A DNA stretch of 64,000 nucleotides, from positions 62,001 through 126,000 of the forward strand of contig JAIXOR010000021.1 in assembly GCA_027486655.1 (NCBI GenBank). Reading direction: 5' to 3'. Within the stretch, counting starts at the first letter, position 1. The number at the start of each line of letters is the position of its first letter. The notes below the pieces were generated by a model. That model did no database searches. It was not told the DNA's origin and was given only the letters and a program-made list of their open reading frames with translations. This stretch comes from Verrucomicrobiaceae bacterium (GTDB taxonomy: Bacteria; Verrucomicrobiota; Verrucomicrobiia; Verrucomicrobiales; Akkermansiaceae). A program made the translations under genes and the position numbers. Of the stretch, positions 5,157 to 61,712 are shown in pieces.

Positions 5157-5888
5157 TCATTTCACCCTCTTCAACCGGTAGCCACCGTAGTCGCTTTTCG
5201 TCAAAGAGAGCCTGCTGGATTGGGCGATCATCAAGATCGGGTTTTCCGCGAGTTTGGCAGGGAATAGGCATGGTGACCCGAGCGTCGATTCAGCGAGAGC
5301 GTCTTCCTCGCTGGATGCGATGAGAACTGCTTCGGCAAGGTGTGAAATCATTCCCGGTGAAATCACATTGATCGGCTGCGGTTGCGAATAAATCCCCGTG
5401 CGGGCCCCCTTGGCGATCAGCCCCCAGTCCATGAGCGTCCTGACGACGCGTGTGACCGCGAAACTGACCGTGTCTCTTTGCCCCAGCTCTTCTCGACAAC
5501 GTCTTTTGAGTTGATCCATGGAACACTGATCCTGAAGGCGAAGTAAACGCCCCGCGTGCCCCGCCACGACGGCGAAGAAAGGATAGGTCGCAAGAAGCAT
5601 CGCATAGTGAACCAGAACACGTTCGTTCCCTGTGGCGTCCTTTAAGATCGACAACGCATTGTTCCGAAAATCACCAAGCTCGCGGCGCGGAATCACCCAA
5701 GTGGTCATCAAAATTGCCAGCCGCTTGTAACGACTGCTCTTTTTGGATGTGGTATTTACTGCGATCGTTTGGCCCAGCAGTTGGTCAAGGCATTCCCGGA
5801 TCTCGTTCGTAGTGTGACCTTCCGCCACGAGACGTGCCGCGGCTTCCATCCATGAGAGTTCAATGGGCTGACTAAATCCAATTTGCAT
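5157..5888 (-). CDS. brxA: BREX system protein BrxA (DUF1819-like)
   Basis: A 243-aa protein at the end of the BREX operon, immediately after and overlapping pglZ. In type 3 BREX the gene order ends with pglZ-brxA, and this protein has the expected size for BrxA, a small DNA-binding-fold protein needed for phage exclusion. The N-terminus (ELSWMEAAARLVAEGHTTNEIRECLDQLL) and the later helical SRYKRLAILMTTWV/LVHYAMLLATYPFFAVVAGH segments fit the DUF1819 family by eye. The assignment rests mainly on position and size, and the sequence motifs are soft. Transcription is with the whole operon from the brxF side. Confidence 0.75.
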   Translation of the reverse strand: MQIGFSQPIELSWMEAAARLVAEGHTTNEIRECLDQLLGQTIAVNTTSKKSSRYKRLAILMTTWVIPRRELGDFRNNALSILKDATGNERVLVHYAMLLATYPFFAVVAGHAGRLLRLQDQCSMDQLKRRCREELGQRDTVSFAVTRVVRTLMDWGLIAKGARTGIYSQPQPINVISPGMISHLAEAVLIASSEEDALAESTLGSPCLFPAKLAENPILMIAQSSRLSLTKSDYGGYRLKRVK

Positions 5889-31331: not shown

Positions 31332-31394
31332 AATGTGCCATCGCGACTTCCCACATAACGGATCGTCGGGACGTTGACTCCAGGTGCCAGAGAA

Positions 31395-39217: not shown

Positions 39218-39666
39218 TCATACTGCTAGATCTCAATTACACGCTGGTGGCGAACTCGCCCAAGCACGGCACCACGCCCGAGCGCATGGAGAAACGATTG
39301 GCCAATGAGCAATATCGCCAGTGGCTGGTGGAGCTCGTGCGGCCTCACACTGTCGTTCTCATTACCGCCCGCCCGGAAACCTGGACGATCAAGACGCTTG
39401 ACCGCATCGAGGAGCAAACCGGCTGGCGACCGCAGGACGCGTGCTTTGCGCCCAAAGGTTGGTGGAATCCCCCGGCGATCAAAGAGCATCTGCTGAAAAA
39501 GGACGTGTTCCCGGTTCACGGCGATGACGCCCGCTACCTAGCCATTGAGAGCAACCCTCGGACTCGCGAGATGTATGCGAAGTTCTCCATTCCCTGCTTA
39601 TGGGTGACGGCGGAAGGCACCTGCCTGACCGAAGGAACGCGGATCGTCAAACGCCTGCCGCGTTGA
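39214..39666 (+). CDS. HAD-like phage protein
   Basis: A 150-aa protein. The N-terminal ILLDLNYTLV is a HAD motif I in which the second Asp of DxDxT is Asn. VLITARPETW is motif II-like, and VHGDDARYLAIESNPRTR corresponds to the acidic motif IV region. The Asn suggests altered or lost phosphotransfer. Starts by ATGA overlap. It may be a nucleotidase-like or purely binding protein. Confidence 0.65.
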   Translation: MIILLDLNYTLVANSPKHGTTPERMEKRLANEQYRQWLVELVRPHTVVLITARPETWTIKTLDRIEEQTGWRPQDACFAPKGWWNPPAIKEHLLKKDVFPVHGDDARYLAIESNPRTREMYAKFSIPCLWVTAEGTCLTEGTRIVKRLPR

Positions 39667-39682
39667 CATCCGCCACGCGGGC

Positions 39683-41013: not shown

Positions 41014-42830
41014 GTGCTCTCAAGCAAATCTGGCGCGAAGCGTGGCAACCGCCCGACCGCAGGCCGCCGTGGGAATGGTGTGAGGATCACATCGAGGGCA
41101 TTCCGTATTCACCGAACCCGGGACGCTTCCGGTCGGAGAACTCGCCGTGGATTCGCGAGGTCATGGAATCGTTGGTCGATCCACGCATCCGGCTTGTTTC
41201 GATTATCGCTTCGGTTCAGTCGTCGAAGACCACGGCTCCGGAGCTGACGCTCTGCTACATCATCACCAACCTTCCCGGGCCGACGCTCTGGCTCGACCAG
41301 ACCGACGAGGATGCTCGCGATTATTCCGAAGCACGGCTCCAGAAACTTTTCGACCAATGCCAGCCGGTGGCGCGGCTCATGCCCACCGGCATCCACCGCC
41401 ACAAGCGCAAGAACAACGCCATCCACTTCAACAACGGCATGGTGCTGTGGATTCTGGGGGCGCACAACAAGACCAACCTGCAGCGCCGGTCGATCCGCTG
41501 GTTGGTCGGTGACGAAACATGGCGCTGGCCGGAAGGTCACATGGCGGAAGCCGAGGCCCGCGTCACCGCATTCGGCTGGCTCGGCAAGTGCATCTTCATG
41601 AGCCAGGGCGGCGAGGAGGATGACGACACCCACCGGAAATTCCTCACCACCGACCAGCGTGAGTGGACGTTTGCCTGCCCGGAATGCGGTCACCGCCAGG
41701 CATTCAAATGGGAATGCGTCGAGTGGAGCAAATCGGCCAGGGATGAATTCGGCGATTGGGATTTCGACGAAGTCCGGCGCACCACCGCCATGCGCTGCGA
41801 GTCGTGCAACCACTACTTCAACGATGGCGAGCGCACCCGCCGCGAACTCAATGCCACCGGGGCATTCGTCGCGAAGAATCCCAAGGCGTCGAAGGAGAAT
41901 GTCGGATTCCATTGGAATGCCCTTTGCGCGATGAGCTGGGGCCAACTCGCTGAACTCTATCTGCGGGCGAAGACAGCGGCGCGGAAGGGCGACGTGTCGT
42001 TGCTCCAGCAGTTCTATCAAAAGCGGCTCGGCCTGCCGTGGCGTGAATACGTCGAGGATTACAAACTCGAAATCACCAAGTCCGGTTACAAGCGCGGCGA
42101 GACATGGGAAGAGGAAGGCGCGATTGATCCAAAAACCGGTCGCATCCTCGCCGCTCCATTGCCTGAGCGCACCGGCCTGATCCCACTCCGTTTCATCACG
42201 GTGGATTGCCAGATGGATCACCTGTTCCTGGTAGTCCGCTCGTGGTCGGCCGAGGGATCAAGCCGCCTGATGTGGAACGAGCGAATTCTGACATTCACCG
42301 ACATCGACGTGATCCAGGAACGCTTCGACGTGCATCCAAGTCTCGTGTTCCTCGACGCCGGCTATGCGACCTACGACGTCTATCGGGAATGCGCCAAGCG
42401 CGGCTGGGTGGCGCTTATCGGCGACCGCCGCCCGGTCTATGCCCACAAGGGGCGCGACGGCAAAACCGTCCAACGATTCTATTCGCCACGCCGCAAGGTG
42501 GTGCTTTCGCATAAGCAGTCCTGCCACGTCCACTACTGGAGCAACCTCAACATCAAGGACACGCTGGCCCGCCTCCGTCGCAATCAGGACGCGTCCCAAG
42601 GTCCGACGTGGGAAGTGCCCGACGACATCGACGACGACTATCTCGCCCAAATGGAAAGCGAGCAGCGGATCAAGGAAAAGGGCCAGTGGATGTGGAAGCA
42701 GATCGGTTCCCGCCCCAATCACTACCTGGACTGCGAGGCGGAACAGGCTGCTGCCGCCACCATGCTCAAGATCGTCGGGCGCGAGGCTGCGGCGGCACTG
42801 CCCGTTGACAGCGCGGACGGGGAGTCATGA
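41010..42830 (+). CDS. terminase large subunit, GpA family
   Basis: A 606-aa ATPase/nuclease of the lambda GpA family. The N-terminal ATPase has the deviant Walker A IIASVQSSKT at 65-74 and the adenine-binding region WLDQTDEDA. A Cys4 zinc element (FACPECGH..CESCNHYF, about 228-275) is characteristic of GpA. The nuclease domain begins near TVDCQMDHLF (about 397) with further Asp residues at VFLDAGYAT. It indicates cos-type packaging as in lambda (family knowledge). Confidence 0.92.
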   Translation: MSALKQIWREAWQPPDRRPPWEWCEDHIEGIPYSPNPGRFRSENSPWIREVMESLVDPRIRLVSIIASVQSSKTTAPELTLCYIITNLPGPTLWLDQTDEDARDYSEARLQKLFDQCQPVARLMPTGIHRHKRKNNAIHFNNGMVLWILGAHNKTNLQRRSIRWLVGDETWRWPEGHMAEAEARVTAFGWLGKCIFMSQGGEEDDDTHRKFLTTDQREWTFACPECGHRQAFKWECVEWSKSARDEFGDWDFDEVRRTTAMRCESCNHYFNDGERTRRELNATGAFVAKNPKASKENVGFHWNALCAMSWGQLAELYLRAKTAARKGDVSLLQQFYQKRLGLPWREYVEDYKLEITKSGYKRGETWEEEGAIDPKTGRILAAPLPERTGLIPLRFITVDCQMDHLFLVVRSWSAEGSSRLMWNERILTFTDIDVIQERFDVHPSLVFLDAGYATYDVYRECAKRGWVALIGDRRPVYAHKGRDGKTVQRFYSPRRKVVLSHKQSCHVHYWSNLNIKDTLARLRRNQDASQGPTWEVPDDIDDDYLAQMESEQRIKEKGQWMWKQIGSRPNHYLDCEAEQAAAATMLKIVGREAAAALPVDSADGES

Positions 42831-44094: not shown

Positions 44095-45536
44095 TCCGCC
44101 TCAAACACATCGCCATGCGTTGGCTGCCGCCGGTCTTTCTTCCGAAAGCATGGAGCTCTCCATTCGAAGCGGCGAACTGGTCGTCGAGGAGGGGATTGGT
44201 CCCCGGATTCGCTCCGACCGATGCGCGGCTGGAACTCACACCGGGAGTCCGCTCCGAGCTGGTCCGCAAGTCGCGTTACCTCCACAAAAACAGCGGCTTC
44301 ATGCGCGAGCTGGTCGCCAACATGGCGATTTATTCCACCGGCGACGGCATCCGCGTCCAGGCACAGTCGCCCAAACCGGAATGGAACCGTGCAGCCGAGG
44401 AATACTTTTCCCTGTGGGCCGCCCGCTGCGAAATCACGCGCCGGTTTTCGTTTGAAGAATGCCAGGCGCTCGTCTGCCGGGGCATGGACATCGACGGCGA
44501 ATACTTCGTCCACAAGACCCGCGATGCCGATGGCGAACCGCGAATCCAGTTGATCGAATCCCACCGCGTCGGCGACCAGTTCGGATCGAAAGACACCATC
44601 GACGGCGTGGGACTCGATGAATGGGGAGCGCCGGTGTTCTATCGGATCTTCGAGGACGATAGCAAATCCCGCGATCTGCCATCGGAGGCAGTGCTGCATA
44701 TCCACGAGCCGGAATGGGCGGGCGGTGTGCGCTCGCATCCGACGATCCAGCATTCGATCAACCACGTCCTCGATGAGATCGAACTGCTCGCCCTGGAGAA
44801 ACATGCGGTGAAGGACAACGCCGATGTTTCCCGCATTCTGAAAACCGCCCGAGGTGAAATCGACGACAACGGTGACTTCGTGGTCGGCGGGCCCGGAACC
44901 AACAATGATCCGAGTGATCCGGTTTCGTTGCAGAAGATCGTCGGCGGCAAGTTGGTGGCACTCAAACCCGACGAGTCGCTCGAAAGCTTCCAGTCGAACC
45001 GCCCGTCACCCACGTTCACCGGATTTCTGGAACACCTGCGACGTGATGCGGCACTCGGCGTGATCCCGTTCGAATTCGCTGCCGATTCCAGCAAGATCGG
45101 CGGCGCGGGTGTGCGTCTGATCGTGGCCAAGGCGGATCGCCGGTTCTCGTTTCGCCAGATGATTCTCGAACGCCGCTTGATCCGCCCGGTGTGGACCTAC
45201 GTGATCGGCGACGCGATCAACCGTGGACTTCTGCCGCCCATGGCCGGGTGGTGGAAGATTTCCTCCGTGCCGCCAAAGCGTGTGACCGTCGATGCCGGAC
45301 GCGAAGCCCAACAGAACCGCGCCGACGTGGAGATGGGACTCAAGACTCTATCAGACCACTTCCAGGAACTCGGTGCCGACTTCGGCGAGGAAATCGAACG
45401 CCGTGCCAGCGATGCGAAGATGATTCTCGAAACGGCGCTCAAATACGGCGTGCCGGTTGAGATGCTCTGGAAACCGTCCGGCGCGGCGTTGACACCGCAG
45501 ACCGGGCGTGAGTCCGCTCCTCTTTCAAAACAGTGA
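44091..45536 (+). CDS. phage portal protein, lambda gpB family
   Basis: A 481-aa portal protein. LRKS-type start of the core (RSELVRKSRYLHKNSGFMRELVANMAIYSTGDGIRVQ), then FSFEECQALVCRGMDIDGEYFVHKT, HEPEWAGGVRSHPTIQHSINHVLDEIELLALEKHAVK and FLEHLRRDAALGVIPFEFAADSSKIGGAGVRLIVAKADRRFSFRQ, all typical of lambda-family portals. The dodecameric ring forms the DNA entry vertex. ATG 44091 by ATGA overlap; its end overlaps the protease start by 29 bp. Confidence 0.9.
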   Translation: MIRLKHIAMRWLPPVFLPKAWSSPFEAANWSSRRGLVPGFAPTDARLELTPGVRSELVRKSRYLHKNSGFMRELVANMAIYSTGDGIRVQAQSPKPEWNRAAEEYFSLWAARCEITRRFSFEECQALVCRGMDIDGEYFVHKTRDADGEPRIQLIESHRVGDQFGSKDTIDGVGLDEWGAPVFYRIFEDDSKSRDLPSEAVLHIHEPEWAGGVRSHPTIQHSINHVLDEIELLALEKHAVKDNADVSRILKTARGEIDDNGDFVVGGPGTNNDPSDPVSLQKIVGGKLVALKPDESLESFQSNRPSPTFTGFLEHLRRDAALGVIPFEFAADSSKIGGAGVRLIVAKADRRFSFRQMILERRLIRPVWTYVIGDAINRGLLPPMAGWWKISSVPPKRVTVDAGREAQQNRADVEMGLKTLSDHFQELGADFGEEIERRASDAKMILETALKYGVPVEMLWKPSGAALTPQTGRESAPLSKQ

Positions 45537-46791
45537 ATGGCTGATCCAGCCGGAAGCCCTGCGCTCGATGGCGGCGGCAGCTCGTTCGTTTCGTGATCGC
45601 GGCGGCGTGCTGCCCCAATCGTCTGCATCCAATCCGCTGCTCAATGTCGAGGACGGCATCGGCACGGTGTCGATTGAAGGTCCGATCCTGCGCAAGCCGG
45701 ACATCTTCGCCCGCGTGCTGATGGGCGCGACGGACTCGGAGGAAATTGGTGCCGCCATCCGCGAGGCAGGCCAGCGCGACGACGTCCGGGCCGTGTTTCT
45801 CAACATCGACTCACCGGGCGGCACCGTGCTTGGCACGCCGGAATTGGCCAATGCGGTTGCCTCGCTCAACGAACGCAAACCCGTCTATGCGTTCTCGTCC
45901 GGCCTGATGGCATCGGCGGCCTACTGGATCGCCAGCCAGGCCCGCGCCATCTATGCAACGCCATCCGCCCAGATCGGATCTATCGGAGTGGTCCAGGCGG
46001 TGATCGACGATTCCGCCGCGCTCGATAAGGAGGGGATCAAGGTGGAGGTGTTTTCCGTTGGGAAATACAAGGCCATTGGCGCACCCGGAACACCGCTAAC
46101 AGACGACCAGCGGGAATTGATCCGCACGAATCTGGCCGAAATCGCACAGGACTTTCACGCGGCGGTGCTGTCGCGTGGTCGCGCCATCCCGGCAGAGGCG
46201 ATGGAAGGACAGACCTTCAGCGGTCGCCAGGCCCAGCGATTGAATCTGGCGGGCATGGTCCCGGATCGCGCCGAAGCGATGCGCCGACTCCGCGTCTATC
46301 ACACGTCGGTTGACACGGAATCCCGTGCCATGAGCACCGCTCTCGAAGACCAACTCGCCGAAGCCCGCACCCAGGTCACCGACCTCCAGCGGAATTACCA
46401 AGCACAGACCGACCTTCTCACCGAAGCGTCCACCAACCTCGATTCACTTCGTGGCGAGGTGGAACTGCTTTCCGCTGAAATCGACACCCTCAAAGCCGAA
46501 CGCGATTCGGCGAAGGGCGACGCCACCGCGCTGCAGACCCGCATCGCCGATCTCCAGGCGTCGCAGGCCGATTTCGACCGGCGCGTCCAGACCGAGGTCG
46601 CACGGGTCGTGGCCTCCACCGGCACCACGCTTCCGGCCCGCGTCACTCCCGCAGGCGACGACAACGTCCTGCCACAGAACGCCACCCTGGATGACATGGT
46701 CGCCCATTACGACCGCCTCGTCACCCAGCGCCGCCCGGAAGAGGCCGCAGCCTTCTTCCAACAGAACCTCGCCAAACACTTCACCCGCTAA
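45508..46791 (+). CDS. S49-family head maturation protease with C-terminal scaffold domain
   Basis: A 427-aa protein analogous to lambda gpC/Nu3. The S49 (SppA-like) protease covers about 1-270: NIDSPGGTVLG oxyanion region, nucleophile Ser136 in GLMASAAYW, and general-base Lys186/188 in VGKYKAIG. Residues 275-390 form a long coiled coil (LEDQLAEARTQVTDLQRNYQ..) typical of a scaffold. The GTG start at 45508 lies within the portal gene and has TTGACA 13 nt upstream. An internal ATG at 46330 would release the scaffold alone. Confidence 0.9.
   Translation: MSPLLFQNSEWLIQPEALRSMAAAARSFRDRGGVLPQSSASNPLLNVEDGIGTVSIEGPILRKPDIFARVLMGATDSEEIGAAIREAGQRDDVRAVFLNIDSPGGTVLGTPELANAVASLNERKPVYAFSSGLMASAAYWIASQARAIYATPSAQIGSIGVVQAVIDDSAALDKEGIKVEVFSVGKYKAIGAPGTPLTDDQRELIRTNLAEIAQDFHAAVLSRGRAIPAEAMEGQTFSGRQAQRLNLAGMVPDRAEAMRRLRVYHTSVDTESRAMSTALEDQLAEARTQVTDLQRNYQAQTDLLTEASTNLDSLRGEVELLSAEIDTLKAERDSAKGDATALQTRIADLQASQADFDRRVQTEVARVVASTGTTLPARVTPAGDDNVLPQNATLDDMVAHYDRLVTQRRPEEAAAFFQQNLAKHFTR
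46310..46332 (+). promoter_or_regulatory. TTGACA element and internal start codon inside the protease gene
   Basis: TTGACA at 46310-46315 stands 14 nt before ATG 46330 in the protease reading frame (Val-Asp-Thr...Met-Ser). The same arrangement precedes most late genes of this phage, so this is a candidate internal initiation signal. Confidence 0.55.
46330..46791 (+). CDS. nested scaffold protein (Nu3-like) from internal start
   Basis: A 153-aa product in the same frame as the protease, starting MSTALEDQL. It is almost entirely coiled coil up to about residue 95, then a Pro/Gly linker and a short capsid-binding-like C-terminus (DDMVAHYDRLVTQRRPEEAAAFFQQNLAKHF). Lambda makes Nu3 from an internal start of gene C in the same way (established). 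Here it is inferred from the domain boundary and the upstream TTGACA element. Confidence 0.55.
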   Translation: MSTALEDQLAEARTQVTDLQRNYQAQTDLLTEASTNLDSLRGEVELLSAEIDTLKAERDSAKGDATALQTRIADLQASQADFDRRVQTEVARVVASTGTTLPARVTPAGDDNVLPQNATLDDMVAHYDRLVTQRRPEEAAAFFQQNLAKHFTR

Positions 46792-48554: not shown

Positions 48555-49877
48555 ATGAATCGCACCCTACTCACCTCAGCCATCTGCACGCTGGCAGGAG
48601 CCCTGATCGCTTCTGCGGATGTGCCTAGTCTCATCAATTACCAAGGCCGTCTCACGGATTCCAGTGGGGCACCGGTCACCGGCAGCAAGACTTTCGCCAT
48701 CAGCATCTACGATGCTGCCACCGCAGGAAATCTGCTCTACTCGGAATCGATTGGCGCGGTGACCCTGGATTCCAATGGGGTCTACAGCTTCCAGTTCGGA
48801 AATGCTGGAACCAGCAACACGCAGGTGACGGAGACCATCGGCACCACGGCGGGTTCCACGCTGACCTACACCAAGACACTTTCGAACACTCCGGTCCTTG
48901 CGAATTCCATCACAGTCACGGACGGCACGAACTCGTGGAGCCAGTCGGTGGGTAATCCGGGCGTGGGCGCGACGGCGACAGCCAATACGATTGTAGGCTT
49001 CGTGATCGGAGCCACGATCACCAATGGAGGTTCCGGTTACACCAGTGCTCCTGCGGTGACCATTACCGGGGCTGGAACAGGCGCAACTGCCACGGCAACG
49101 CTTACGGGTGACGTGGTGACGGGTATCACAATCAACAGTGCCGGAAGTGGCTACACGGGAGCGGTGACCATCACGATTGCTCCGCCGGTCATTCCTTTCC
49201 GCGTGGATTACAGCAGCGGCGCGATTACTGCCACTTATTCTCCAGCACCTGCGGCAGGAAGAACGATCACAGCCACCTACCGCTATGGCACGAGCGGAAT
49301 CACCGGGGCTCTGAGCAGTGGCGCGGAGCACTGGATGGCCATCAGCGTGGATGGAGTTACGCAGGGAACTCGGCAGCGGGTTTTGGCAGTGCCGTTTTCG
49401 GCATATGCTAAAGTGGCATCAACAGCAGAGAAATTGGCGCCGCAAACTATAAAATGGAGGCCTGAAATTTTTTCAACATATCAAAACGGAAGTGGATCTT
49501 CTACATTGCCATTTGGAGGAGCAAATAACAATAACGGAATACGTGGAGAATGCGTTATACCTCAACCAATAAGCTCGCTGAATTCATTGTATTTTAAGTA
49601 TGCAATGGGAAGAGGTTATTATTCAAATGGTGGGGCAGATCTCGACATTAGCATTATTGAGAATAAGGAAGATGGGTCGGAGGCAATCGTATTCAAAGAA
49701 GTTACAAGAATGCTGCCGACCGATCCAGCTGCGCCCGGAATGCAAAGTAAAATATCCAATTTGAGCCTGGATTTTAATAGCTCCTCATTCTACAAGATCA
49801 GGGTTTCGATGAGTATATCGTGGTCGGCTTCGGTCAATCTTTTGGATGTTGTTCTAACTGGCAAGACGTCAATTTAA
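48555..49877 (+). CDS. secreted Ser/Thr/Gly-rich repeat protein with AT-rich C-terminal domain (cargo)
   Basis: A 440-aa protein. The signal peptide is MNRTLLTSAICTLAGALIASA; a 'LINYQGRLTDSSGAPV' domain follows that I associate with Verrucomicrobia surface proteins. It contains GSGYTSAPAVTITGAGTGATATATL and a related GSGYTGAVTITIAPP repeat. From about 49430 onward the DNA becomes clearly AT-rich (residues about 290-440), so the C-terminal domain comes from a different source. It may be a surface or tail-displayed recognition domain (inference). Confidence 0.7.
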   Translation: MNRTLLTSAICTLAGALIASADVPSLINYQGRLTDSSGAPVTGSKTFAISIYDAATAGNLLYSESIGAVTLDSNGVYSFQFGNAGTSNTQVTETIGTTAGSTLTYTKTLSNTPVLANSITVTDGTNSWSQSVGNPGVGATATANTIVGFVIGATITNGGSGYTSAPAVTITGAGTGATATATLTGDVVTGITINSAGSGYTGAVTITIAPPVIPFRVDYSSGAITATYSPAPAAGRTITATYRYGTSGITGALSSGAEHWMAISVDGVTQGTRQRVLAVPFSAYAKVASTAEKLAPQTIKWRPEIFSTYQNGSGSSTLPFGGANNNNGIRGECVIPQPISSLNSLYFKYAMGRGYYSNGGADLDISIIENKEDGSEAIVFKEVTRMLPTDPAAPGMQSKISNLSLDFNSSSFYKIRVSMSISWSASVNLLDVVLTGKTSI

Positions 49878-50152
49878 AATTAGTCGAAATAGCATCTGAA
49901 TGGGTCGGTCCTCGCGAATTCGAATCTGTAAGCCGTATTGCTCCATGATCATCCTTTGCCTGTTACTTGGATGAAACGCCGATGGGGTTCGTCTCTAAAG
50001 GGGGCGGTTCCGAAAATCCAGTGTTCGCGCGTAAGCGCTCCACGGACCACCCGTTCCCAAGCCGACGGTAAAGGCGATAGGAAGGCATGAAAGCTATTCC
50101 GGCGGTGCTTTTTCTGTGGACCGTTCTGAAAGCAGGGAGCGCATTCTCGTCG

Positions 50153-50796: not shown

Positions 50797-51571
50797 CGTG
50801 CGTTTTACCGCCAAGATGAAGGGCGGCAGCGACGTGGCGAGGTTGCTCAATCGCTATCCGGAAAAGGTGGGCCGCACCATGGAATCGCTGGTGAAGCAGG
50901 AAGCCCGCGGACTCGCCGTCGAACTGGCACGCAATACGCGGCCCTTTGGATTCTCGGAGAAGGCAAAAAAGTTGGGCGAGCGTGCGGTGGCCAAGGACAT
51001 CAGCGGCGTGTTCGCTCTGCCATCCGCCGCCTTCGAGGAAATCCGCAAGTCCGACCCGGGAGCGGCAGACAGGTTTTGGTCGAACATCCAGAACCGGCGA
51101 TTCTCCAGGGCCGAAACTGCGCTTCGGTCGTCGAGCTCCGGCTGGAAGGATCTAACCGTCGGGCGTCTCGATCCAAAGCTTCACAAGTGGGGGCAACTGG
51201 GTGGCGACAAGCCGAAGCAGATCGTCACCAGCAGCAAGGCGCTCGATACCTACATCGCCAAGATCCAGAAGCGCGTCGGCTTCGCCAAAGGCACATGGAT
51301 CAACGCGGCAAAGGCCATCGGTGGCCGAGTTCGCGGTTCCGTTCAATGGGTGACCCGTCACAAGCAGTCCCCTGGAACAGCCACCGTAAAGACCGGCGAC
51401 AAGGCATCTGTCACTCTCATCAACAAGCTCGATTACATCGAAGAGGTTTCCACCTACACCGGAATCAACCTCGCGCTTCAAGTGGCTGCAGGGCGGCTGC
51501 GGAAAGCGTTGTTCACGTCATTGACGAAGATCAACGACAAGGCGAACCGATCCTTCCGGAAAGCGGGTTGA
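50789..51571 (+). CDS. minor tail/tail-completion protein (gp10/gpZ-like)
   Basis: A 260-aa basic protein starting at ATG 50789 inside the end of the connector gene. KMKGGSDVARLLNRYPEKVGRTMESLVKQEARGLAVELARNTRPFG matches the pattern of HK97 gp10/lambda gpZ-type tail completion proteins. It ends in GTTGACT, the element before the next gene. Confidence 0.65.
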   Translation: MSDVRFTAKMKGGSDVARLLNRYPEKVGRTMESLVKQEARGLAVELARNTRPFGFSEKAKKLGERAVAKDISGVFALPSAAFEEIRKSDPGAADRFWSNIQNRRFSRAETALRSSSSGWKDLTVGRLDPKLHKWGQLGGDKPKQIVTSSKALDTYIAKIQKRVGFAKGTWINAAKAIGGRVRGSVQWVTRHKQSPGTATVKTGDKASVTLINKLDYIEEVSTYTGINLALQVAAGRLRKALFTSLTKINDKANRSFRKAG

Positions 51572-51589
51572 CTCGCATTCACGGTCAAG

Positions 51590-52021: not shown

Positions 52022-52048
52022 CGCGGTTGACACGCCACACGCGGTCAA

Positions 52049-53288: not shown

Positions 53289-53506
53289 CCGCCCAGGTGT
53301 TCGCCGTCGCCGCAGAAACCGGGTGGTCCGAGGAGCGGATTCTGTTCATGCCACTGGCTCGGTTGGCGCAGTATCAGCACTGCCTGTTGCGGCGGAATGG
53401 GGTGCGGACGGGGTGGAGTAGTATCGGACAGGAGCTGGTCGGACTCAGCGATCAGTTGGAGGCCTTGCGGGTGCAGTTTGGTGGACCGCTAGTCAGAATA
53501 GATTGA
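52869..53506 (+). CDS. tail assembly chaperone G-T fusion by -1 frameshift
   Basis: After slippage at 53252-53258 translation continues in the -1 frame as APPCDEPGFLAAQVFAVAAETGWSEERILFMPLARLAQYQHCLLRR, ending at 53506 (about 212 aa in total). The T part has no good start codon of its own near the junction, which supports frameshifting as in lambda G/GT (established for lambda). The ratio of products normally matters for tape-measure loading. Confidence 0.7.
53252..53258 (+). promoter_or_regulatory. programmed -1 frameshift site A-AAA-AAG
   Basis: The heptamer is in the correct register (GGA AAA AAG) and is the same as the Escherichia coli dnaX slippery site. The -1 frame stays open upstream and downstream. 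A GC-rich stretch (GCCCCTCCC) follows; a defined stimulatory structure was not resolved. Confidence 0.7.
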
Positions 53507-53726
53507 AGCGAATGCATGATGAACTAATTCCGGCTCAATTTGAGTTGTCCGCTCGTTGTGCATCTCGAATTGCCGTAGTCACCGGCGAAGCGATCCGTCC
53601 AGAGATTCCTCTGGTTAAGGTCAAGCAGACATTGTAGATTACCCTGCGGCAGCCAGTCTGCTGATGGGGGTATCCGCCCGAGCCTGTGAACAAAGGAACT
53701 TCAACCCTGACACCCAGTGGCAAATC

Positions 53727-54275
53727 ATGAATGAGTGCGCATCAGCAACCACCCCCTGCAATCTATTAGCCGACTACTCGATATTCGATCAAACGCTTGC
53801 CAAAGAAATGGCGATTGCTTTAACAGCTGACGATATTGTTAATTCAAGTGATTTCTGTATCGGTATTCCGTTAGTAAAAGAAGTTGAAATTCTTAGTATT
53901 AACGATTATCTATCTTCCTTGAGTCAGAAGGTCGGATTGTATCACCTATGGGTCGATTCTGGAGAAAATTGCCCGGATCACAAGCTGCACAAGATGATTT
54001 GTGTTTACGTCGGTAAGGGTATTGTAGGCACTAGAATTAGAAGTCACATCAAAGAAAAGTGGCCGGAGTCTGAAATGATTTACATTACGTTCTTTGAATG
54101 CAAAAATCGTATAGCCAAGTATCTAGAACAGCTCTTTTTGGATACCTACGGATTCTACCTAAATGAGTATGAAAATTCCGGAGGGGATTACTTGTATGGG
54201 CTATGGGACGATCATCGCTACGACAATGGAACAGAGACTCAGCGATTGGGGGACATTCTAGTAACAAGATTGTAG
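53727..54275 (+). CDS. GIY-YIG family nuclease (cargo)
   Basis: A 182-aa protein of visibly lower GC than its surroundings. The GIY-YIG core is VGLYHLWV (GIY-like, 70-72), ICVYVGKG (YIG-like, 94-96), then R103, H107 and catalytic Glu134 in KYLEQLF, and Asn in LNEYENSGG. ATG 53727 is preferred over ATG 53664. It is inserted between the tail chaperones and the tape measure and followed by its own terminator. It may be a homing-type or defensive nuclease. Confidence 0.7.
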   Translation: MNECASATTPCNLLADYSIFDQTLAKEMAIALTADDIVNSSDFCIGIPLVKEVEILSINDYLSSLSQKVGLYHLWVDSGENCPDHKLHKMICVYVGKGIVGTRIRSHIKEKWPESEMIYITFFECKNRIAKYLEQLFLDTYGFYLNEYENSGGDYLYGLWDDHRYDNGTETQRLGDILVTRL

Positions 54276-54342
54276 CCAAAAATCGAAAATTGAGGTTGAT
54301 TGGCAGGTGATGACTCTGCCCCCTCGAATAAACTGGAGGATT

Positions 54343-54375
54343 GAATACACTTGGGATTTTGCCCCAAGTGTATTC
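54343..54375. terminator. strong hairpin terminator after the GIY-YIG cargo gene
   Basis: GAATACACTTGGG (54343-54355) pairs perfectly with CCCAAGTGTATTC (54363-54375) around a 7-nt loop and is followed by TGTTTT. It lies between convergent genes and may work in both directions. Confidence 0.75.
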
Positions 54376-54393
54376 TGTTTTCGGTGCTTCAGA

Positions 54394-54645
54394 TCAGTCT
54401 AATGTGATCGAAACGCGCGTTTCATTTGGGTCTAGCGAGCCCACTATTTCAATGGATGCCGCTCCAGGAAAGAGCATCCACTGAGGTTTGCCGAATGTCT
54501 GCGGGTAGCCGATTCCATCTTCTTCATGCCATCGGCAAGCCAGGCTGAAATTGGCACTTCCTTCCCAATGGCCACGTGCGATTGCGAATCCACCCTTGTT
54601 GTAAACGATGTCGTGGACGCTGAATTTACTAGTACTTGCTATCAT
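54394..54645 (-). CDS. small unknown cargo protein
   Basis: An 83-aa protein on the minus strand, opposite to all surrounding late genes. It reads MIASTSKFSVHDIVYNKGGFAIARGHWEGSANFSLACRWHEEDG..IEIVGSLDPNETRVSITLD, a compact beta-rich sequence without a recognised family. Opposite orientation plus the adjacent terminator is typical of morons expressed from the prophage. Confidence 0.55.
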   Translation of the reverse strand: MIASTSKFSVHDIVYNKGGFAIARGHWEGSANFSLACRWHEEDGIGYPQTFGKPQWMLFPGAASIEIVGSLDPNETRVSITLD

Positions 54646-54818
54646 ATAACTACTTTCGTTATCTTTGTTGTTGTTGGCTTGGAGGCTTTTGGTTGCAACT
54701 TCGCGACCCTAAGACTCTCCAGACGGAGAAGCCCTACTTCGAAGCGCCTGGGAGATCAAGAATGATTTTTGAGAACCATGTGGAATGGCTCCGAATCGGT
54801 TGACTCGACCCCCGGCGC

Positions 54819-56567
54819 ATGAGCGCCCTGACAGTCACCCTTGGAGCCGACATCACCGCCTTGAAGCGGGCCATGGCCGGTGCCACGGAACTCGTCGGTG
54901 CGTCGGCCCGCCGCATGAGCAAATTGACCGGCGCAGGTCTGGCGGGACTCGGCAAAGGTGGGGCTGCAGCACTCAGCCAGGGATTCTCGGTCGCGGGTGT
55001 CGCACTCAAGGCGGGCATCGGCGCAGCTCTGGCAGGTGGCGCAGCAGCGATGGGCGTCGGGGTGAAGGCCGTCACTTCCGCCGCCGACTTCGAGCAGACA
55101 AAGGTCGCGTTCTCCACCCTGATCGGTGATGCGGCCAAGGCGGAAGAAACACTCGCGAAACTCCGCGAACTCGGTGCCCAGACGCCGTTTGAATTCCCCG
55201 AACTGGCGGATGCCGGCCGAAAGCTGATCGCATTCGGTGAGAATGCCGACACCGTGCCTGAAACCCTGCGACGAATCGGCGACATCTCTGCTGGTATCCA
55301 GGCACCGATCAACGAAATCGCGGAAATCTACGGCAAGGCGCGAGTCCAGGGACGGCTTTTCGGTGAGGACATCAACCAGCTCACAGGCCGGGGCATTCCG
55401 ATCATCGGCGAGCTGGCGAAACAGTTCGGCGTTTCGGATTCTCAGGTGAAGAAACTGGTCGAATCCGGACAGGTTGGATTTCCGCAGGTCGAGAAGGCGT
55501 TCATTTCTCTCACGTCCCAAGGCGGCAAGTTCTCGGGCATGATGGAAGCGCAGAGCAAGACCACTAATGGCTTGTTTTCCACGCTCAAGGACACGGTCAA
55601 CGAGGTGTTTCTATCACTCGGCCAACCGATCAACGATGCGATCCGCCCCCTGGTTGCCGAAGCCATCGGCCTAGTGTCCAAACTCACGCCCCTAGCGGTC
55701 GAGGCGGGCAATCGGATCAAGGACGCGATCATGTTCATCATCACCGCGTTCAAGAGCGGCCAGATTCTCGACCTCGTGGCGTCATCGCTGAAACTTGCCT
55801 TCGCCATCGGCATCAACACGCTGGTCAATGGCTTCCGGTTGGCGGTTGAGTTTTTCTGGAACCTCATTACCGACGGCGCGATGTGGAAGAGCCTCGGCAC
55901 GACCTTGCTCGGACTGGTGGCCGGCTTCGGCGCGGCTTTGCTCAATGCGTTCCAGACGCCCATCGTCTATCTCCAGGCGGGCATGGAATGGGTGGTGGCC
56001 CATCTGCTCAAGGGACTGCTCAAAATCCCCGGCATGGCCGACCTGCTAGGCTTCGATGAAAGCGCAGTGGAAACCAACTTCGGCAAGATCCTCAAGGACC
56101 GGAAGGAAACAGGCGCGGAGTTGTTCGGCTTCAACATGAAAGACCTCGCCAAACAGGCGGATGATCTTATGTCGTCTGGAGCACCGGCCCTCGGCGAACG
56201 GGTTGCGGAAGCGGCTCGGAAGGCTGGCGAATCCACCAGCGCTGAACTCATCGACACCACGGGCTTGCGCGACAGCTTCGGCAAGGTGGTCGCCTCGATC
56301 CGTGATTCCATGCCGAAGCCCGAAGTCGTGAAGCAGGCGGCAACCGCAGCAGCGCAGACCAAGAACACGCCCATGATCGACAAGGAATCCCATCTCGCCC
56401 CCGTCGTCACGTCTCTCGGCAAGGTCGGTGGCGGCGGATACTCGTCCGGCACGCTCGACGCCCAGCGCGAGAACAACAAGCTGACGAGTGAGACAAACCG
56501 GATTCTGCGGGACATGAGCGAGCGTATGAAACCAGGCACAGGCAAGTTCGTCCCCGCATTCGGTTGA
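54819..56567 (+). CDS. tail tape measure protein
   Basis: A 582-aa protein. It has the N-terminal LTVTLGADITALKRAMAGATELVGASARRMSKLT start, the TMP_N-like region with FEQTKVAFSTLIGDAAKAEETLAKLRELGAQTPFEFPELADAGRKLIAFG, and hydrophobic segments around 310-400. The length is short and predicts a tail of moderate length. TTGACT-N13-ATG precedes it. It is cut off from the chaperones by 1.3 kb of cargo. Confidence 0.85.
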   Translation: MSALTVTLGADITALKRAMAGATELVGASARRMSKLTGAGLAGLGKGGAAALSQGFSVAGVALKAGIGAALAGGAAAMGVGVKAVTSAADFEQTKVAFSTLIGDAAKAEETLAKLRELGAQTPFEFPELADAGRKLIAFGENADTVPETLRRIGDISAGIQAPINEIAEIYGKARVQGRLFGEDINQLTGRGIPIIGELAKQFGVSDSQVKKLVESGQVGFPQVEKAFISLTSQGGKFSGMMEAQSKTTNGLFSTLKDTVNEVFLSLGQPINDAIRPLVAEAIGLVSKLTPLAVEAGNRIKDAIMFIITAFKSGQILDLVASSLKLAFAIGINTLVNGFRLAVEFFWNLITDGAMWKSLGTTLLGLVAGFGAALLNAFQTPIVYLQAGMEWVVAHLLKGLLKIPGMADLLGFDESAVETNFGKILKDRKETGAELFGFNMKDLAKQADDLMSSGAPALGERVAEAARKAGESTSAELIDTTGLRDSFGKVVASIRDSMPKPEVVKQAATAAAQTKNTPMIDKESHLAPVVTSLGKVGGGGYSSGTLDAQRENNKLTSETNRILRDMSERMKPGTGKFVPAFG

Positions 56568-57038
56568 CGCATCGAGGGTCATACGGTGAAATCATGAGCA
56601 CTAGAACATGCGCTTCGAACCGATCACTTATTCGAAACTGAATTCCCGTCAGCAGGAAACCTACAATTTTCACAAGGTCGCAGGAATTCTGGCCGATTAT
56701 GGTTTCACCTCGATCCGTCTTTCAGATGATTGGGAGGGAGCCGATTTTATTGCGCAGCACATCGACGGGTCATCGTTTCTGAAAGTCCAGCTCAAGGGGC
56801 GACTATCGTTCAGCAAGAAATACGTGGGTAAGGATCTTTGGATCTGCTTCATGCATGAAAATCAGGTGATTCTCTATCCACACGATCAAGCTTTGGAGAA
56901 TTTCTCCAGAGAGGGCAGGATCACCAATACTGACGCATGGAATGAAGGTGGGAACTATCACTTCCCATATCTTGGAAAAGAGGTTCTCGATTTGATTGAG
57001 GAGTTTCGGATTCGACCGGTTCAAACCTTCGGTTGACG
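56559..57038 (+). repeat. 11-bp direct repeats TTCGGTTGACG flanking a cargo gene
   Basis: TTCGGTTGACG occurs at 56559-56569 (the end of the tape measure gene) and 57028-57038 (the end of the cargo gene), 469 bp apart. Removing one repeat plus the intervening DNA would restore a clean tape-measure stop followed by TTGACG-N16-ATG of the next tail gene. Confidence 0.65.
56608..57036 (+). CDS. PD-(D/E)XK-like cargo protein
   Basis: A 142-aa protein. DDWEGADFIAQHIDGSSFLKVQLKGRLSF gives Asp46, Gln61 and Lys63 in a D-x14-Q-x-K pattern, typical of restriction-type or DUF4365-like PD-(D/E)XK folds where Glu is replaced by Gln. The base composition is more AT-rich than the neighbouring tail genes. It is inserted between the tape measure and the next tail gene. 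It may be a nuclease used for superinfection exclusion (inference). Confidence 0.65.
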   Translation: MRFEPITYSKLNSRQQETYNFHKVAGILADYGFTSIRLSDDWEGADFIAQHIDGSSFLKVQLKGRLSFSKKYVGKDLWICFMHENQVILYPHDQALENFSREGRITNTDAWNEGGNYHFPYLGKEVLDLIEEFRIRPVQTFG

Positions 57039-57054
57039 TCACGTCCCGGCCAAG

Positions 57055-57777
57055 ATGCCGAGACACGTTTCCATTCAGCCGGGCAAACTCTACCCACAGC
57101 CGGATTACAGCCTCAGCGTGGACCGCGAGGGAAAGTGGACGGCCACACAGGTATTCCTCTGCCACCGCAATTCGATCACCCAGGTGATGCCGCGACCGGG
57201 GACGCCGCACCCGGACATTTCGTTCATCTCGGTGGACAACGCCACGGCCCAAGTCAGCGAGGGCGACATCGCTCAGATCACCTGCAACTACGCGGGCACC
57301 GACAACGGCGACAACGATCCTAACAAGACCACCTACACGCTCGGACTTTCGCTTTCGGAGGAGCCGTTGCTGTCCCACAAGAAGCTCCGTGATCTGGACG
57401 CGGACGAAGTGGAGGCGTTGCAGGCCATCATCAGCGGCAAGGACAAGGACGCGGCCGGATCGCCCTACAAGGACAAGGTGAAGAGCGCACTTGGCAAAAA
57501 GGCGCTCGAAAAGATCCAGCGCGGCCAGACCTCCTACTATTCCCCGAAAGTCACCTGGCGGCAGGCCACCGTTCGCAAGGCGTCGGCAGCATCCTCCGAC
57601 GTGCGCAAGATCGGCAAGATCGACGAACCGGACGGCAGGCAACCGACCCTAAGCGACGGACGCAACTGGCTCTACAACGGCGTCACCCAAACCCAGGAGG
57701 GCGGATCCTACCGCATCGAGCGCGAGTGGATCGCCAGCGACCGGGGCGGATGGGACACGGATATTTACACCGACTGA
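57055..57777 (+). CDS. tail protein (hypothetical)
   Basis: A 240-aa protein at the distal-tail position. The N-terminal half is beta-rich (HVSIQPGKLYPQPDYSLSVDREGKWTATQVFLCHRN) and the C-terminal half is helical then beta. WLYNGVTQTQEGGSYRIEREWIASDRGGWDTDIY at the end is a common ending of phage tail proteins. TTGACG lies 16 nt upstream of the ATG. Confidence 0.65.
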   Translation: MPRHVSIQPGKLYPQPDYSLSVDREGKWTATQVFLCHRNSITQVMPRPGTPHPDISFISVDNATAQVSEGDIAQITCNYAGTDNGDNDPNKTTYTLGLSLSEEPLLSHKKLRDLDADEVEALQAIISGKDKDAAGSPYKDKVKSALGKKALEKIQRGQTSYYSPKVTWRQATVRKASAASSDVRKIGKIDEPDGRQPTLSDGRNWLYNGVTQTQEGGSYRIEREWIASDRGGWDTDIYTD

Positions 57778-59694: not shown

Positions 59695-59890
59695 TCCGTT
59701 CGCCGCGTCGCCCGATGCACCGCCCCGCCCGAGAGCTGCCAAGATCCGCATGAAGCTCAAGGGAGCCGACGACGGCCCGGTCTATCAGGGAACGGATTTG
59801 GTGATTCCCTGCGCGACGTGTGGCGGGCGGTTGACAGCGGATCAGGGGCGTGAAGCTCCACGTCGATCTGGAAACCCTGCAACTCATTGA
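59657..59890 (+). CDS. small zinc-knuckle-like phage protein
   Basis: A 77-aa protein that overlaps the ends of both neighbours. A proline-rich N-terminal half is followed by KLKGADDGPVYQGTDLVIPCATCGGRLTADQG with a single C-x-x-C pair. The overlap with the next gene's TTGACA element makes its true extent uncertain. Confidence 0.4.
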   Translation: MKTSASTIPTKPDPFAASPDAPPRPRAAKIRMKLKGADDGPVYQGTDLVIPCATCGGRLTADQGREAPRRSGNPATH

Positions 59891-60678: not shown

Positions 60679-61689
60679 ATGAAACCGATTCTAGCCATCC
60701 TCCTTTTCTTGAGTGGCAGTGCGTTCGCCCAGAATGCCGCCGTCACCAAGAACCCATCCAATAACTTCCTGACCGGCGATCTCGTCATGCCGGGTGGCCG
60801 AACCCTGCGCGTGGACGGCACGTTGCAAACGGCGCAAACGCCGATCCTGCTGGGTCGTTCCTACCCCGATGATTGGAACGGCCAATCGGCATTCACTTCG
60901 ATTCTGTCCTCGGATTATGGCTATCACGGATTGCTCTCCCGCACGCAAGGCAACGCGGGCATCGCCGTCATCGGGTTGTCGGAAACCGGTGCCTGTGCGG
61001 GCAAGTTCGTCCAACTCTACAACTTCAGTTCGCCCACGGTGTATCTGGGGCGGGATGCTGCATCGTATCCTTGGTGGTCGCCGCCGACCTCGCCGACACT
61101 GATCGTCAGCACGCCGGCCAACTGGACGGTCACGCCGATTGCCGAGTTCAAAAAGAACCAGAGCGAAGTGGTGCTTTCCATCGGCAGCGACGGCAGCGTG
61201 ACCGCACCGTATCAGCAATACACCGACAGCAACGCGCTCATCACCCAGAGCTTTGCGGGGAATACCTTCATGGCCAAATACGGCGTCACCAACGGAACTG
61301 ACGCAAACGGTGGCGAGGTCGGTGAATACGCTGCGAGTTCCGGGTCCAGCACGTCACTGGTCACGGCCACGGCCAAGACGATCCATTCGCTAACGCTCTC
61401 ACCGGGCGACTGGGACATCGAGGGTGTCGCCACCTACACCAAGGCGGCAACGACCGTCGTCACCTACACCCAACAGGGGATCAGCACGACCAACAACACG
61501 CTCGGCGGCACCGGAACCTTCACCGCAACAGCCGCCGCGATTTCCGATGTGATTCCGTCCGCGTTCATGACGCCCATTGTGCGCCTCAACCTAACCGGCT
61601 ACACCACGATTTACCTCGTCTCCCGCGCCGGGTTCACCACGTCCACCCTCACGGCCACCGGATTCCTCCGCGCCCGCCGTGTCCGTTGA
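60679..61689 (+). CDS. signal-peptide-bearing tail-region protein
   Basis: A 336-aa protein with a clear signal peptide (MKPILAILLFLSGSAFA followed by Q). The mature part is beta-rich and Thr/Ser-rich, with SLTLSPGDWDIEGVATYTKAATTVVTYTQQGIS as in fibre tips. Export by Sec of a phage-encoded structural-type protein is unusual; it may be an infected-cell surface protein or a fibre with a mimicking N-terminus. Confidence 0.65.
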   Translation: MKPILAILLFLSGSAFAQNAAVTKNPSNNFLTGDLVMPGGRTLRVDGTLQTAQTPILLGRSYPDDWNGQSAFTSILSSDYGYHGLLSRTQGNAGIAVIGLSETGACAGKFVQLYNFSSPTVYLGRDAASYPWWSPPTSPTLIVSTPANWTVTPIAEFKKNQSEVVLSIGSDGSVTAPYQQYTDSNALITQSFAGNTFMAKYGVTNGTDANGGEVGEYAASSGSSTSLVTATAKTIHSLTLSPGDWDIEGVATYTKAATTVVTYTQQGISTTNNTLGGTGTFTATAAAISDVIPSAFMTPIVRLNLTGYTTIYLVSRAGFTTSTLTATGFLRARRVR

Positions 61690-61712
61690 CACCTCACCAG
61701 AATCCGACATCC

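What the first reader, a model, noticed from the sequence alone, without database searches (positions are those of the whole stretch)
56559..57038. Single-gene cargo flanked by 11-bp repeats that contain the TTGAC element
TTCGGTTGACG at both ends means the cargo can be removed to give a seamless tape-measure/tail-gene junction. This shows directly that the TTGAC boundaries serve, or have served, as sites of gene gain.
Basis: seen in the sequence. Interest (0 to 1): 0.6.

Follow-up and report, generated by a model that had tools for sequence, protein, structure and literature searches.

The report
Cargo gene beside reused phage start signal
A prophage carries an extra nuclease-like gene at a gene boundary where related phages have nothing or other genes, and the short repeat around it is best read not as a cut-and-paste site but as a duplicated overlap between the end of one gene and a conserved phage-specific 'start here' signal (GTTGAC) of the next.

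Summary
TTCGGTTGACG occurs exactly twice, at the ends of a low-GC 142-aa ORF between the tape-measure gene (TMP) and the next gene (P3). Relatives confirm gene gain: 61 of 76 distinct TMP|P3 junctions are empty, 15 hold inserts. Two relatives carry this same gene there, again between repeats.

The mechanism read from the repeat is not supported. GTTGAC belongs to the downstream gene: it lies 19-23 nt before the start codon of TMP, P3, C3 and C4 in 200 of 202 distinct leaders, precedes a nested start inside the protease gene in 13 of 13 sequences, and is rare before host genes (2 of 243). Inserts gather at these four junctions (82 of 222) and are nearly absent at six others (1 of 225). The right copy is complete in 14 of 14 inserts compared, the left in 5. 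Repeat length is no better within than between inserts (p=0.18). Where stop and GTTGAC do not overlap, the five inserts lack the repeat.

Best reading: a moron-type insert at a start-associated element, probably for translation initiation. The element is the more interesting find.

The parts
54819..56567 (+). Tape measure protein gene (TMP_3), ends TTC GGT TGA
   Evidence: Pfam TMP_3 7.2e-22; PHROG tape measure 6e-71
56559..56569 (+). Left repeat TTCGGTTGACG: last two codons and stop of TMP, plus CG
   Evidence: in the 14 inserts compared the left TTGAC is present in 5
56570..57027 (+). Inserted low-GC segment (insert body without the two repeats)
   Evidence: GC dip; absent from empty relatives
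56608..57036 (+). Cargo ORF, 142 aa, PD-(D/E)XK-fold nuclease-like; its stop lies in the right repeat
   Evidence: AF2 best model pLDDT 89.8; nearest solved folds Hjc Z 8.9, I-Ssp6803I Z 8.1; invariant E17, D46, Q61, K63 in a 17-row alignment
57028..57038 (+). Right repeat TTCGGTTGACG
57032..57037 (+). GTTGAC start element of P3, TTGAC 22 nt before its ATG
   Evidence: 56 of 58 distinct P3 leaders have it
57055..57777 (+). P3, conserved tail-region gene of unknown family
   Evidence: no Pfam family; relatives
54799..54804 (+). GTTGAC element of TMP, TTGAC 19 nt before its ATG
   Evidence: 72 of 72 distinct TMP leaders
53507..54798 (+). Second insert of this prophage, at the C6|TMP junction (203-aa ORF 53664-54275 and 83-aa ORF 54394-54645 minus)
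   Evidence: GC dip; 53 of 63 distinct junctions filled here, 10 empty. Left edge taken as the end of the ORF that closes at 53506
51567..51572 (+). GTTGAC element of C3 (ATG 51590); holds the stop of C2
   Evidence: 36 of 36 distinct leaders; 8 distinct inserts at this junction in relatives
52026..52031 (+). GTTGAC element of C4 (ATG 52049); does not overlap the C3 stop here
   Evidence: 36 of 36 distinct leaders; the five inserts compared here lack repeats
46309..46314 (+). GTTGAC inside the S49 protease gene (45508-46791), before nested in-frame ATG 46330
   Evidence: CGGTTGACA in 13 of 13 distinct sequences aligned over the site, window included; Peptidase_S49
46330..46791 (+). Putative nested scaffold ORF (153 aa, coiled-coil like)
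   Evidence: scaffold role inferred
59830..59835 (+). GTTGAC element of C9 (GTG 59850)
   Evidence: 36 of 37 distinct leaders
45488..45493 (+). GTTGAC before the protease gene (GTG 45508)
61685..61690 (+). GTTGAC before C11 (ATG 61713, 27 nt)
39662..39667 (+). GTTGAC before a tRNA-methyltransferase-like gene (ATG 39683)
42804..42809 (+). GTTGAC before the ORF with ATG 42827, at the end of the terminase gene
31373..31378 (+). GTTGAC before the ORF with ATG 31395

Best explanation
The cargo is a moron-type insert in a siphovirus-like prophage of a probably verrucomicrobial host. It sits at a junction that has taken many different inserts. GTTGAC is a phage-specific start element belonging to the downstream gene, with TTGAC 19-23 nt before the start codon in the gene families surveyed. 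It most likely acts in the mRNA as a signal for ribosomes to start afresh on genes not translationally coupled to the gene before. At TMP|P3 the TMP stop (TTCGG-TTGA) lies inside this element, so an insert can survive only if both functions are kept: a left copy ending TMP and a right copy starting P3. That gives the direct repeat without any recombinase for the sequence. Such junctions gather genes because arbitrary DNA is tolerated just 5' of the element, whereas coupled junctions would be broken. Shown here: the empty site, repeated filling, right-copy retention, near-fixed spacing, nested-start conservation, no repeat where stop and element do not overlap. Inferred: the translational role, the reason why these junctions tolerate inserts, and entry by rare illegitimate or short-homology recombination filtered by selection.
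For: Empty and filled junctions in relatives. GTTGAC in 72/72 TMP, 56/58 P3, 36/36 C3, 36/36 C4 and 36/37 C9 distinct leaders, TTGAC-to-start spacing 19-23 nt; 0 of 163 distinct leaders of C2, C5, C6, C7 and C10. In 18 other phage loci 105 of 123 coding-strand GTTGAC lie 17-27 nt before a start, against 29 of 191 for six control hexamers and 9 of 62 on the other strand. Window: 13 of 17, top hexamer before 43 phage genes (9 of 43), host 2 of 243. Nested start: 13 of 13 keep CGGTTGACA; of 247 Val-Asp codon pairs in 400 distinct genes only 6 are GTT GAC, 4 of them at this site. Right GTTGAC kept in 14 of 14 TMP|P3 inserts, left TTGAC in 5 of 14. Repeats not insert-specific: mean 8.0 within, 7.7 between, p=0.18; C2|C3 5.9 and 5.7, p=0.34; C3|C4 4.2 and 4.6, p=0.93. 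Cargo ORFs do not bring the element in start position: 1 of 131.
Against: Five of 14 TMP|P3 inserts share at least one base, and four at least two, beyond the stop (window 2, L017 3, L104 3, L038 2, L016 1; read), and 7 of 14 right copies keep TTCGG or TTTGG of the TMP end, more than the element alone needs. So a real small duplication at insertion is not excluded in some cases, and the within/between test has low power (14, 8 and 5 inserts). C4|C5 has a 23-33 nt gap in most phages and no GTTGAC, so 'uncoupled genes need it' has an exception. No pairing partner was found: GTCAAC occurs in 1 of 5 same-genus 16S genes (one of the five partial), and the own 16S was not found in the assembly. Junction counts are not corrected for shared descent; an old insert inherited by several phages counts more than once. 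All leaders come from relatives of one phage type. Two distant relatives (L127, L129) lack GTTGAC before P3, and the related capsid's phage P8625 does not show the element.
Confidence: 0.74

Rival explanations
1. One reading: TTCGGTTGAC (or GTTGAC) is itself a recombination or insertion site. Cargo enters by site-specific recombination or by homologous recombination at this short shared boundary sequence, and can leave by recombination between the copies.
For: Inserts lie directly 5' of GTTGAC at four junctions and almost nowhere else among those surveyed (82 of 222 against 1 of 225). The window has an 11-bp perfect repeat, L017 11, L016, L038 and L123 10. TTCGG or TTTGG kept upstream of the right GTTGAC in 7 of 14.
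Against: Repeat length is no better within an insert than between inserts (low power). The five inserts at C3|C4 have no such repeat; left TTGAC is absent in 9 of 14 TMP|P3 and 8 of 8 C2|C3 inserts. Near-fixed spacing to start codons and the nested in-gene copies are not expected of a recombination site. Only 1 of 131 cargo ORFs has GTTGAC in start position.
Confidence: 0.14
2. GTTGAC is a start element, but a transcription one: part of a phage promoter (or a site for a phage transcription factor) serving each unit, rather than a translation signal.
For: TTGAC equals the core of the sigma-70 -35 box (recalled). Independent promoters would explain why genes, even minus-strand ones (L114, L060), can sit between units without silencing the next gene. 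Rarely present before host genes.
Against: Spacing to the start codon is nearly fixed (TMP 19 nt in 71 of 72 leaders), while bases upstream of GTTGAC carry almost no information in TMP leaders. The sigma-70 consensus scan of 56400-57200 reports no hit at the element. A -35 this close to the start codon would place the transcript start inside the gene.
Confidence: 0.28
3. The cargo is a mobile gene of its own: a homing-type PD-(D/E)XK nuclease that cuts the empty TMP|P3 junction, with repeats as halves of its target or a target-site duplication.
For: Fold near I-Ssp6803I (Z 8.1) and Hjc (Z 8.9). The same gene is at the same junction in three phages; the L016 copy is 89% identical although its TMP is only 57% identical to the window's.
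Against: Most other inserts at this junction carry other genes. P3 of L016, as far as its contig shows it (134 residues), is also 85% identical, so TMP exchange explains the contrast equally well. Middling Z values; no cleavage test.
Confidence: 0.08

Closest known systems
Start Associated Sequences (SAS) of Cluster K mycobacteriophages (PMC3203893; passages read); similar motifs in Cluster EF Microbacterium phages (PMC7302621; passages read)
   Same: In Cluster K: a short asymmetric motif before many phage start codons, nearly always in one orientation, absent or rare in the host genomes checked there, on genes of different families, sometimes holding the stop codon of the gene before; role in translation initiation proposed, untested.
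   Different: SAS are 13 bp, typically 3-7 bp before the start and contain the Shine-Dalgarno core, on non-structural genes; GTTGAC is 6 bp, about 20 nt before the start, without Shine-Dalgarno core, and here best documented on structural genes. The passages I read do not link SAS with insertion sites.
18-bp motif of Cluster EC Microbacterium phages such as Quhwah (PMC7302621; passages read)
   Same: One orientation, 21-30 bp before a predicted start codon, in small intergenic regions; one copy stands before an inserted gene.
   Different: Different sequence (TAGaCT[C/A]TaGGTgTaAgC), longer, mostly outside the structural genes, different hosts.
Morons, DNA inserted between genes contiguous in related phages (as described in PMC3029335; passages read)
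   Same: Single-gene or small inserts between conserved genes, absent from relatives; atypical base composition here.
   Different: No plus-strand promoter or terminator of its own was recognised for this cargo by a consensus scan; here the insert sites coincide with a gene-start element.
Island3 gene 68 / Brujita junction (PMC3029335; section 13 read)
   Same: An inserted gene whose 3' end repeats the 3' end of the gene upstream, with an empty relative; recombination at a shared sequence is proposed there.
   Different: About 50-60 bp of repeat there, 11 bp here; here other inserts at the same site suggest the repeat is a consequence of conserved flanks.
PD-(D/E)XK nucleases Hjc (2wcw) and I-Ssp6803I (2ost)
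   Same: Predicted fold and a D...Q-x-K pattern (core assignment recalled, not from a call).
   Different: About 14-20% identity over the aligned part; function not shown.

Membership tests
Moron | Present between two genes that adjoin in related phages | tested here: met
   61 empty, 15 filled distinct TMP|P3 junctions
Moron | Atypical base composition | tested here: met
   GC 0.467 in the insert against about 0.60 around it
Moron | Own promoter and terminator | tested here: inconclusive
   Consensus scan found no plus-strand promoter or terminator (two promoter-like and one terminator-like site, all on the minus strand); host promoter types unknown
Start Associated Sequence (by analogy) | Conserved asymmetric motif at near-constant distance before start codons of several gene families, in one orientation | tested here: met
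Start Associated Sequence (by analogy) | Near-absent from host gene starts | tested here: met
   2 of 243 host genes (the host set is 20 stretches of the own genome plus the left part of the window, and stretch L180 adjoins the prophage). In the same stretches GTTGAC itself is neither rare nor enriched: 121, expected 114 (both strands of 331 kb)
Start Associated Sequence (Cluster K sense) | 3-7 bp before the start with Shine-Dalgarno core | tested here: not met
   TTGAC is 19-23 nt before the start, no AGGAG in it
Transposon with target-site duplication | Insert-specific direct repeat | tested here: not met
   Within-insert repeats no longer than between inserts (low power)
Transposon with target-site duplication | Transposase in the insert | tested here: not met
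   The cargo is the only plus-strand ORF over 100 aa in the insert and has no significant family match
Integron cassette | attC beside the cargo in the prophage | tested here: inconclusive
   A simple pattern found none beside the cargo, but it also missed attC-like hairpins seen by eye at L007 and L011; the cargo ORF runs to the right edge of the insert
PD-(D/E)XK fold | Fold and D...(E/Q)-x-K core | tested here: met
   AF2 model (five models 89.8 to 73.6), fold matches mostly to such nucleases (best Z only 8.9), invariant D46, Q61, K63; which residues form the core is recalled
Homing endonuclease | Cuts the empty allele of its own site | not testable with these tools
   needs protein and DNA

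The most novel reading that the evidence does not exclude
Phages of (probably) Verrucomicrobiota use a translation-start signal unlike Shine-Dalgarno: GTTGAC with its TTGAC 19-23 nt before the start codon, used for genes not coupled to their neighbours and for a nested scaffold start, nearly excluded from in-frame coding sequence elsewhere and not used by host genes. It would be read by a phage-made or phage-modified initiation factor, and by being separable from the gene before it would set where cargo genes can settle.
Probability: 0.45. Interest if true: 0.75.

Novelty: new variant of a known kind. Interest (0 to 1): 0.52.

Why it matters
It explains short repeats around phage cargo without a recombinase, and gives a general test: ask whether a stop codon overlaps a start element of the next gene. 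It also adds to the start-associated phage motifs in print one with no Shine-Dalgarno part, conserved even inside a gene, in a host group whose phages are little studied. If the signal is translational, how a ribosome reads a hexamer about 20 nt upstream becomes directly testable. The junctions are also an easy way to harvest prophage cargo (82 distinct inserts, 131 mechanical ORFs in 99 clusters; some of these ORFs are chance ORFs or reach into flanking genes).

Tried and rejected
Chance: an exact 11-bp repeat within 500 bp is common, so significance rests on position. Recombination site: see rivals; the within- against between-insert comparison gave p=0.18, 0.34 and 0.93. 16S pairing: GTCAAC in 1 of 5 same-genus 16S genes (L186 partial); no 16S was found in the own assembly. 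Phage-coded ribosomal protein bS21 as reader of the element: the genome's only Pfam S21 match lies on another contig (C86). Same element in the named phage with the best related capsid, P8625 (33% identity; three records matched, two of them this phage): GTTGAC is not among its 15 commonest leader hexamers; of its 12 plus-strand copies some lie over stop codons, and by eye none has the 17-27 nt spacing to an annotated start. Host promoter: TTGAC shows no clear peak before 188 host ORFs (largest 5-nt bin 3). Integron origin of the window insert: no attC-like pattern beside it, pattern weak. Family searches for the cargo: no match better than E 0.06 (Pfam), 0.15 (PHROG), 0.11 (NCBIfam), none in PADLOC, 0.65 in PDB sequences. 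Papers: five searches for such an element or such hotspots listed nothing on GTTGAC in these phages, judged from the listed titles and abstract starts only: 20 of 90 papers, 15 of 249, 15 of 24, 15 of 132, 8 of 35; the library holds open-licence papers only. P8625 by name gave two papers, not read.

Limits: loci were fetched by similarity to the window's TMP and P3 (80 kept of 125 for TMP), so frequencies are for close and middling relatives, not all phages. Gene starts in relatives come from tblastn extension. Insert thresholds (60 nt; 300 for C6|TMP; 160 for C8|C9) were mine. In one search leaders whose start codon was not ATG, GTG or TTG were dropped; alignments not spanning the site and identical fragments were dropped. 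L144 (the window's own genome) was dropped from the counts. One search counts C3|C4 inserts as 6 where one search finds 5 distinct insert sequences, so at least one may be double; L092 carries nearly the insert of L058 and was left out. The one C5|C6 insert (L121, 108 nt) has no GTTGAC. C12|C13 has 2 inserts of 15 and its leaders mostly lack GTTGAC (1 of 10 distinct; TTGAC in 6); C8|C9 has 1 of 8 by my threshold. Both were left out of the 222/225 totals, which use C2|C3, C3|C4, C6|TMP, TMP|P3 against C1|C2, C4|C5, C5|C6, P3|C7, C7|C8, C9|C10. The six control hexamers were chosen by hand, and its 18 loci are related to each other.
Full report
What is there. The window holds a prophage: recombination and replication genes, terminase, S49 capsid protease, a weak P22-like coat match, tail genes and a tape-measure gene. 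The host is probably verrucomicrobial: this is recalled from features of same-genus 16S genes and fits the capsid's best match in named phages, Verrucomicrobia phage P8625 (33%). Between the tape-measure gene (TMP, 54819-56567) and a conserved gene of unknown family (P3, 57055-57777) lies a low-GC segment with one 142-aa ORF, bounded by TTCGGTTGACG at 56559-56569 and 57028-57038. Both copies cover a stop codon: TMP ends TTC GGT TGA and so does the cargo.

Is the repeat more than chance? Its length is not: 31 exact 11-bp direct pairs within 500 bp occur in the window. Its place is.

Gene gain is real. Relatives fetched from IMG/VR and from same-genus and same-order genomes show the junction empty, normally 18-19 nt between stop and ATG, or filled. 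On distinct junctions: 15 of 76 filled at TMP|P3, 8 of 38 at C2|C3, 6 of 45 at C3|C4 and 53 of 63 at C6|TMP. Junctions whose downstream gene lacks GTTGAC are nearly untouched: C1|C2 0 of 32, C4|C5 0 of 57, C5|C6 1 of 63, P3|C7 0 of 62, C7|C8 0 of 5, C9|C10 0 of 6. Cargo is diverse: 131 mechanical ORFs of 70 aa or more fall into 99 clusters. At TMP|P3 these include a GNAT protein (L024) with, by eye, a TacA-like ORF beside it, a TacA-like antitoxin in L019, a DprA-type protein with a HAD hydrolase (L041), and an FGE-sulfatase-domain protein (L123). The window's own gene recurs at this junction in L016 (89% identical) and L017 (frameshifted).

What GTTGAC is. Before start codons it is nearly invariant: TMP 72 of 72 distinct leaders, P3 56 of 58, C3 36 of 36, C4 36 of 36, C9 36 of 37, with TTGAC-to-start spacing 19-23 nt. 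C2, C5, C6, C7 and C10 have it in 0 of 163. Upstream of GTTGAC the TMP leaders carry almost no conserved information except at the base just before it, so the unit is GTTGAC, a spacer of nearly fixed length, and a start codon. In 18 other loci 105 of 123 coding-strand copies lie 17-27 nt before a start, against 29 of 191 for six control hexamers and 9 of 62 on the other strand. In the window 13 of 17 do, and it is the top hexamer before 43 phage genes (9), with 2 of 243 host genes. The strongest test is inside the protease gene. An in-frame ATG at 46330 starts a coiled-coil-like 153-aa product, as in nested scaffold genes of other phages (recalled: lambda C/Nu3). CGGTTGACA precedes it in 13 of 13 distinct aligned sequences; in 12 it reads as Val-Asp in the aligned frame, in L124 its TGA is a stop in that frame. 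Of 247 Val-Asp codon pairs in 400 distinct genes only 6 are GTT GAC, and 4 of these are at that site.

What the repeat is. At TMP|P3 and C2|C3 the upstream stop TGA lies inside GTTGAC. An insert there must leave a stop on the left and a whole element on the right. The right GTTGAC is whole in 14 of 14 TMP|P3 inserts compared; the left TTGAC in 5 of 14, and four left copies use another stop codon. At C2|C3 the left TTGAC is kept in 0 of 8. At C3|C4, where the stop normally lies before the element, the five inserts show no such repeat. Pairing left and right ends of different inserts gives repeats as long as pairing those of one insert (7.7 against 8.0, p=0.18), though with so few inserts the test is weak. 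So conserved flanks suffice to explain the repeat. Extra matching in five inserts (window, L016, L017, L038, L104) leaves room for small real duplications. At C6|TMP the empty form overlaps too: in L099 the gene frame before TMP appears to run through GTTGAC to a TGA that overlaps the TMP start (by eye), and L088 and L129 seem to keep an altered copy of that TMP-start region at the left of the insert (by eye).

How it probably works. Genes without GTTGAC typically start within a few bases of the preceding stop or overlap it, except C5; genes with it are not so tightly coupled or are nested. I therefore favour a signal for fresh translation initiation in a host whose genes show little Shine-Dalgarno signal in my rough scan. 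A promoter role remains open. No GTCAAC partner was found in 4 of 5 same-genus 16S genes.

The cargo. AF2 with 17 rows gave pLDDT 89.8 for the best of five models (89.8 to 73.6). Nearest solved folds are the Hjc resolvases (Z 8.9, rmsd 2.9, 102 aligned), SPARDA nuclease (Z 8.2) and I-Ssp6803I (Z 8.1); Foldseek E-values 3e-4 and weaker. Such Z values are middling. Fourteen bacterial homologues (41-56%) lie in organisms of several phyla by their record titles; two (L007, L011) stand between attC-like hairpins by eye, so the gene may also travel as an integron cassette; 3 of the 14 genomes have an integron integrase over the cut-off. In L016 the left GTTGAC stands 17 nt before an ATG in frame with the cargo, the only such case among 131 cargo ORFs.

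Known relatives of the idea. Start Associated Sequences of Cluster K mycobacteriophages and similar motifs of Microbacterium phages are the nearest kind I found; morons and the Island3 gene 68 insertion are the nearest insert cases. GTTGAC differs in sequence, distance, lack of a Shine-Dalgarno core and its link with cargo sites. My paper searches listed no report of it (listings only).

Verdict. Observation confirmed; 'boundaries are sites of gene gain' confirmed; 'the repeats show the mechanism' not supported. The element deserves the attention more than the cargo.

Noticed in passing
window 5888-7867 (-) and 16453-20157 (-): PglZ-domain protein and a DUF6079 1234-aa protein: looks like a BREX-type island (recalled association) on the host side next to the prophage.
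   Followed up: no
window 53664-54275 (+): 203-aa low-GC ORF with a GIY-YIG-like stretch (YVGKG...R) by eye; no significant family hit. Part of the second insert, at C6|TMP.
   Followed up: partly
L017 3851-4277: Copy of the cargo gene broken by a frameshift near its end.
   Followed up: no
L007 4814-5575, L011 1760-2500: Cargo homologues between attC-like hairpins, so possibly integron cassettes (by eye).
   Followed up: partly
L188 (KP792622) 5448, 10772, 15594: Phage P8625: these genes have TGACA about 35 nt before ATG and GATAC or AATAC just before it, perhaps promoters of leaderless mRNAs (by eye).
   Followed up: no
window 49400-49900: Another low-GC dip in the structural region (GC about 0.39-0.45), perhaps a further insert.
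   Followed up: no
L019 5562-5921; L024 5375-5962: TMP|P3 inserts with a TacA-like antitoxin in L019 and a GNAT protein in L024; a TacA-like ORF beside the latter and no GNAT in the former, by eye.
   Followed up: no
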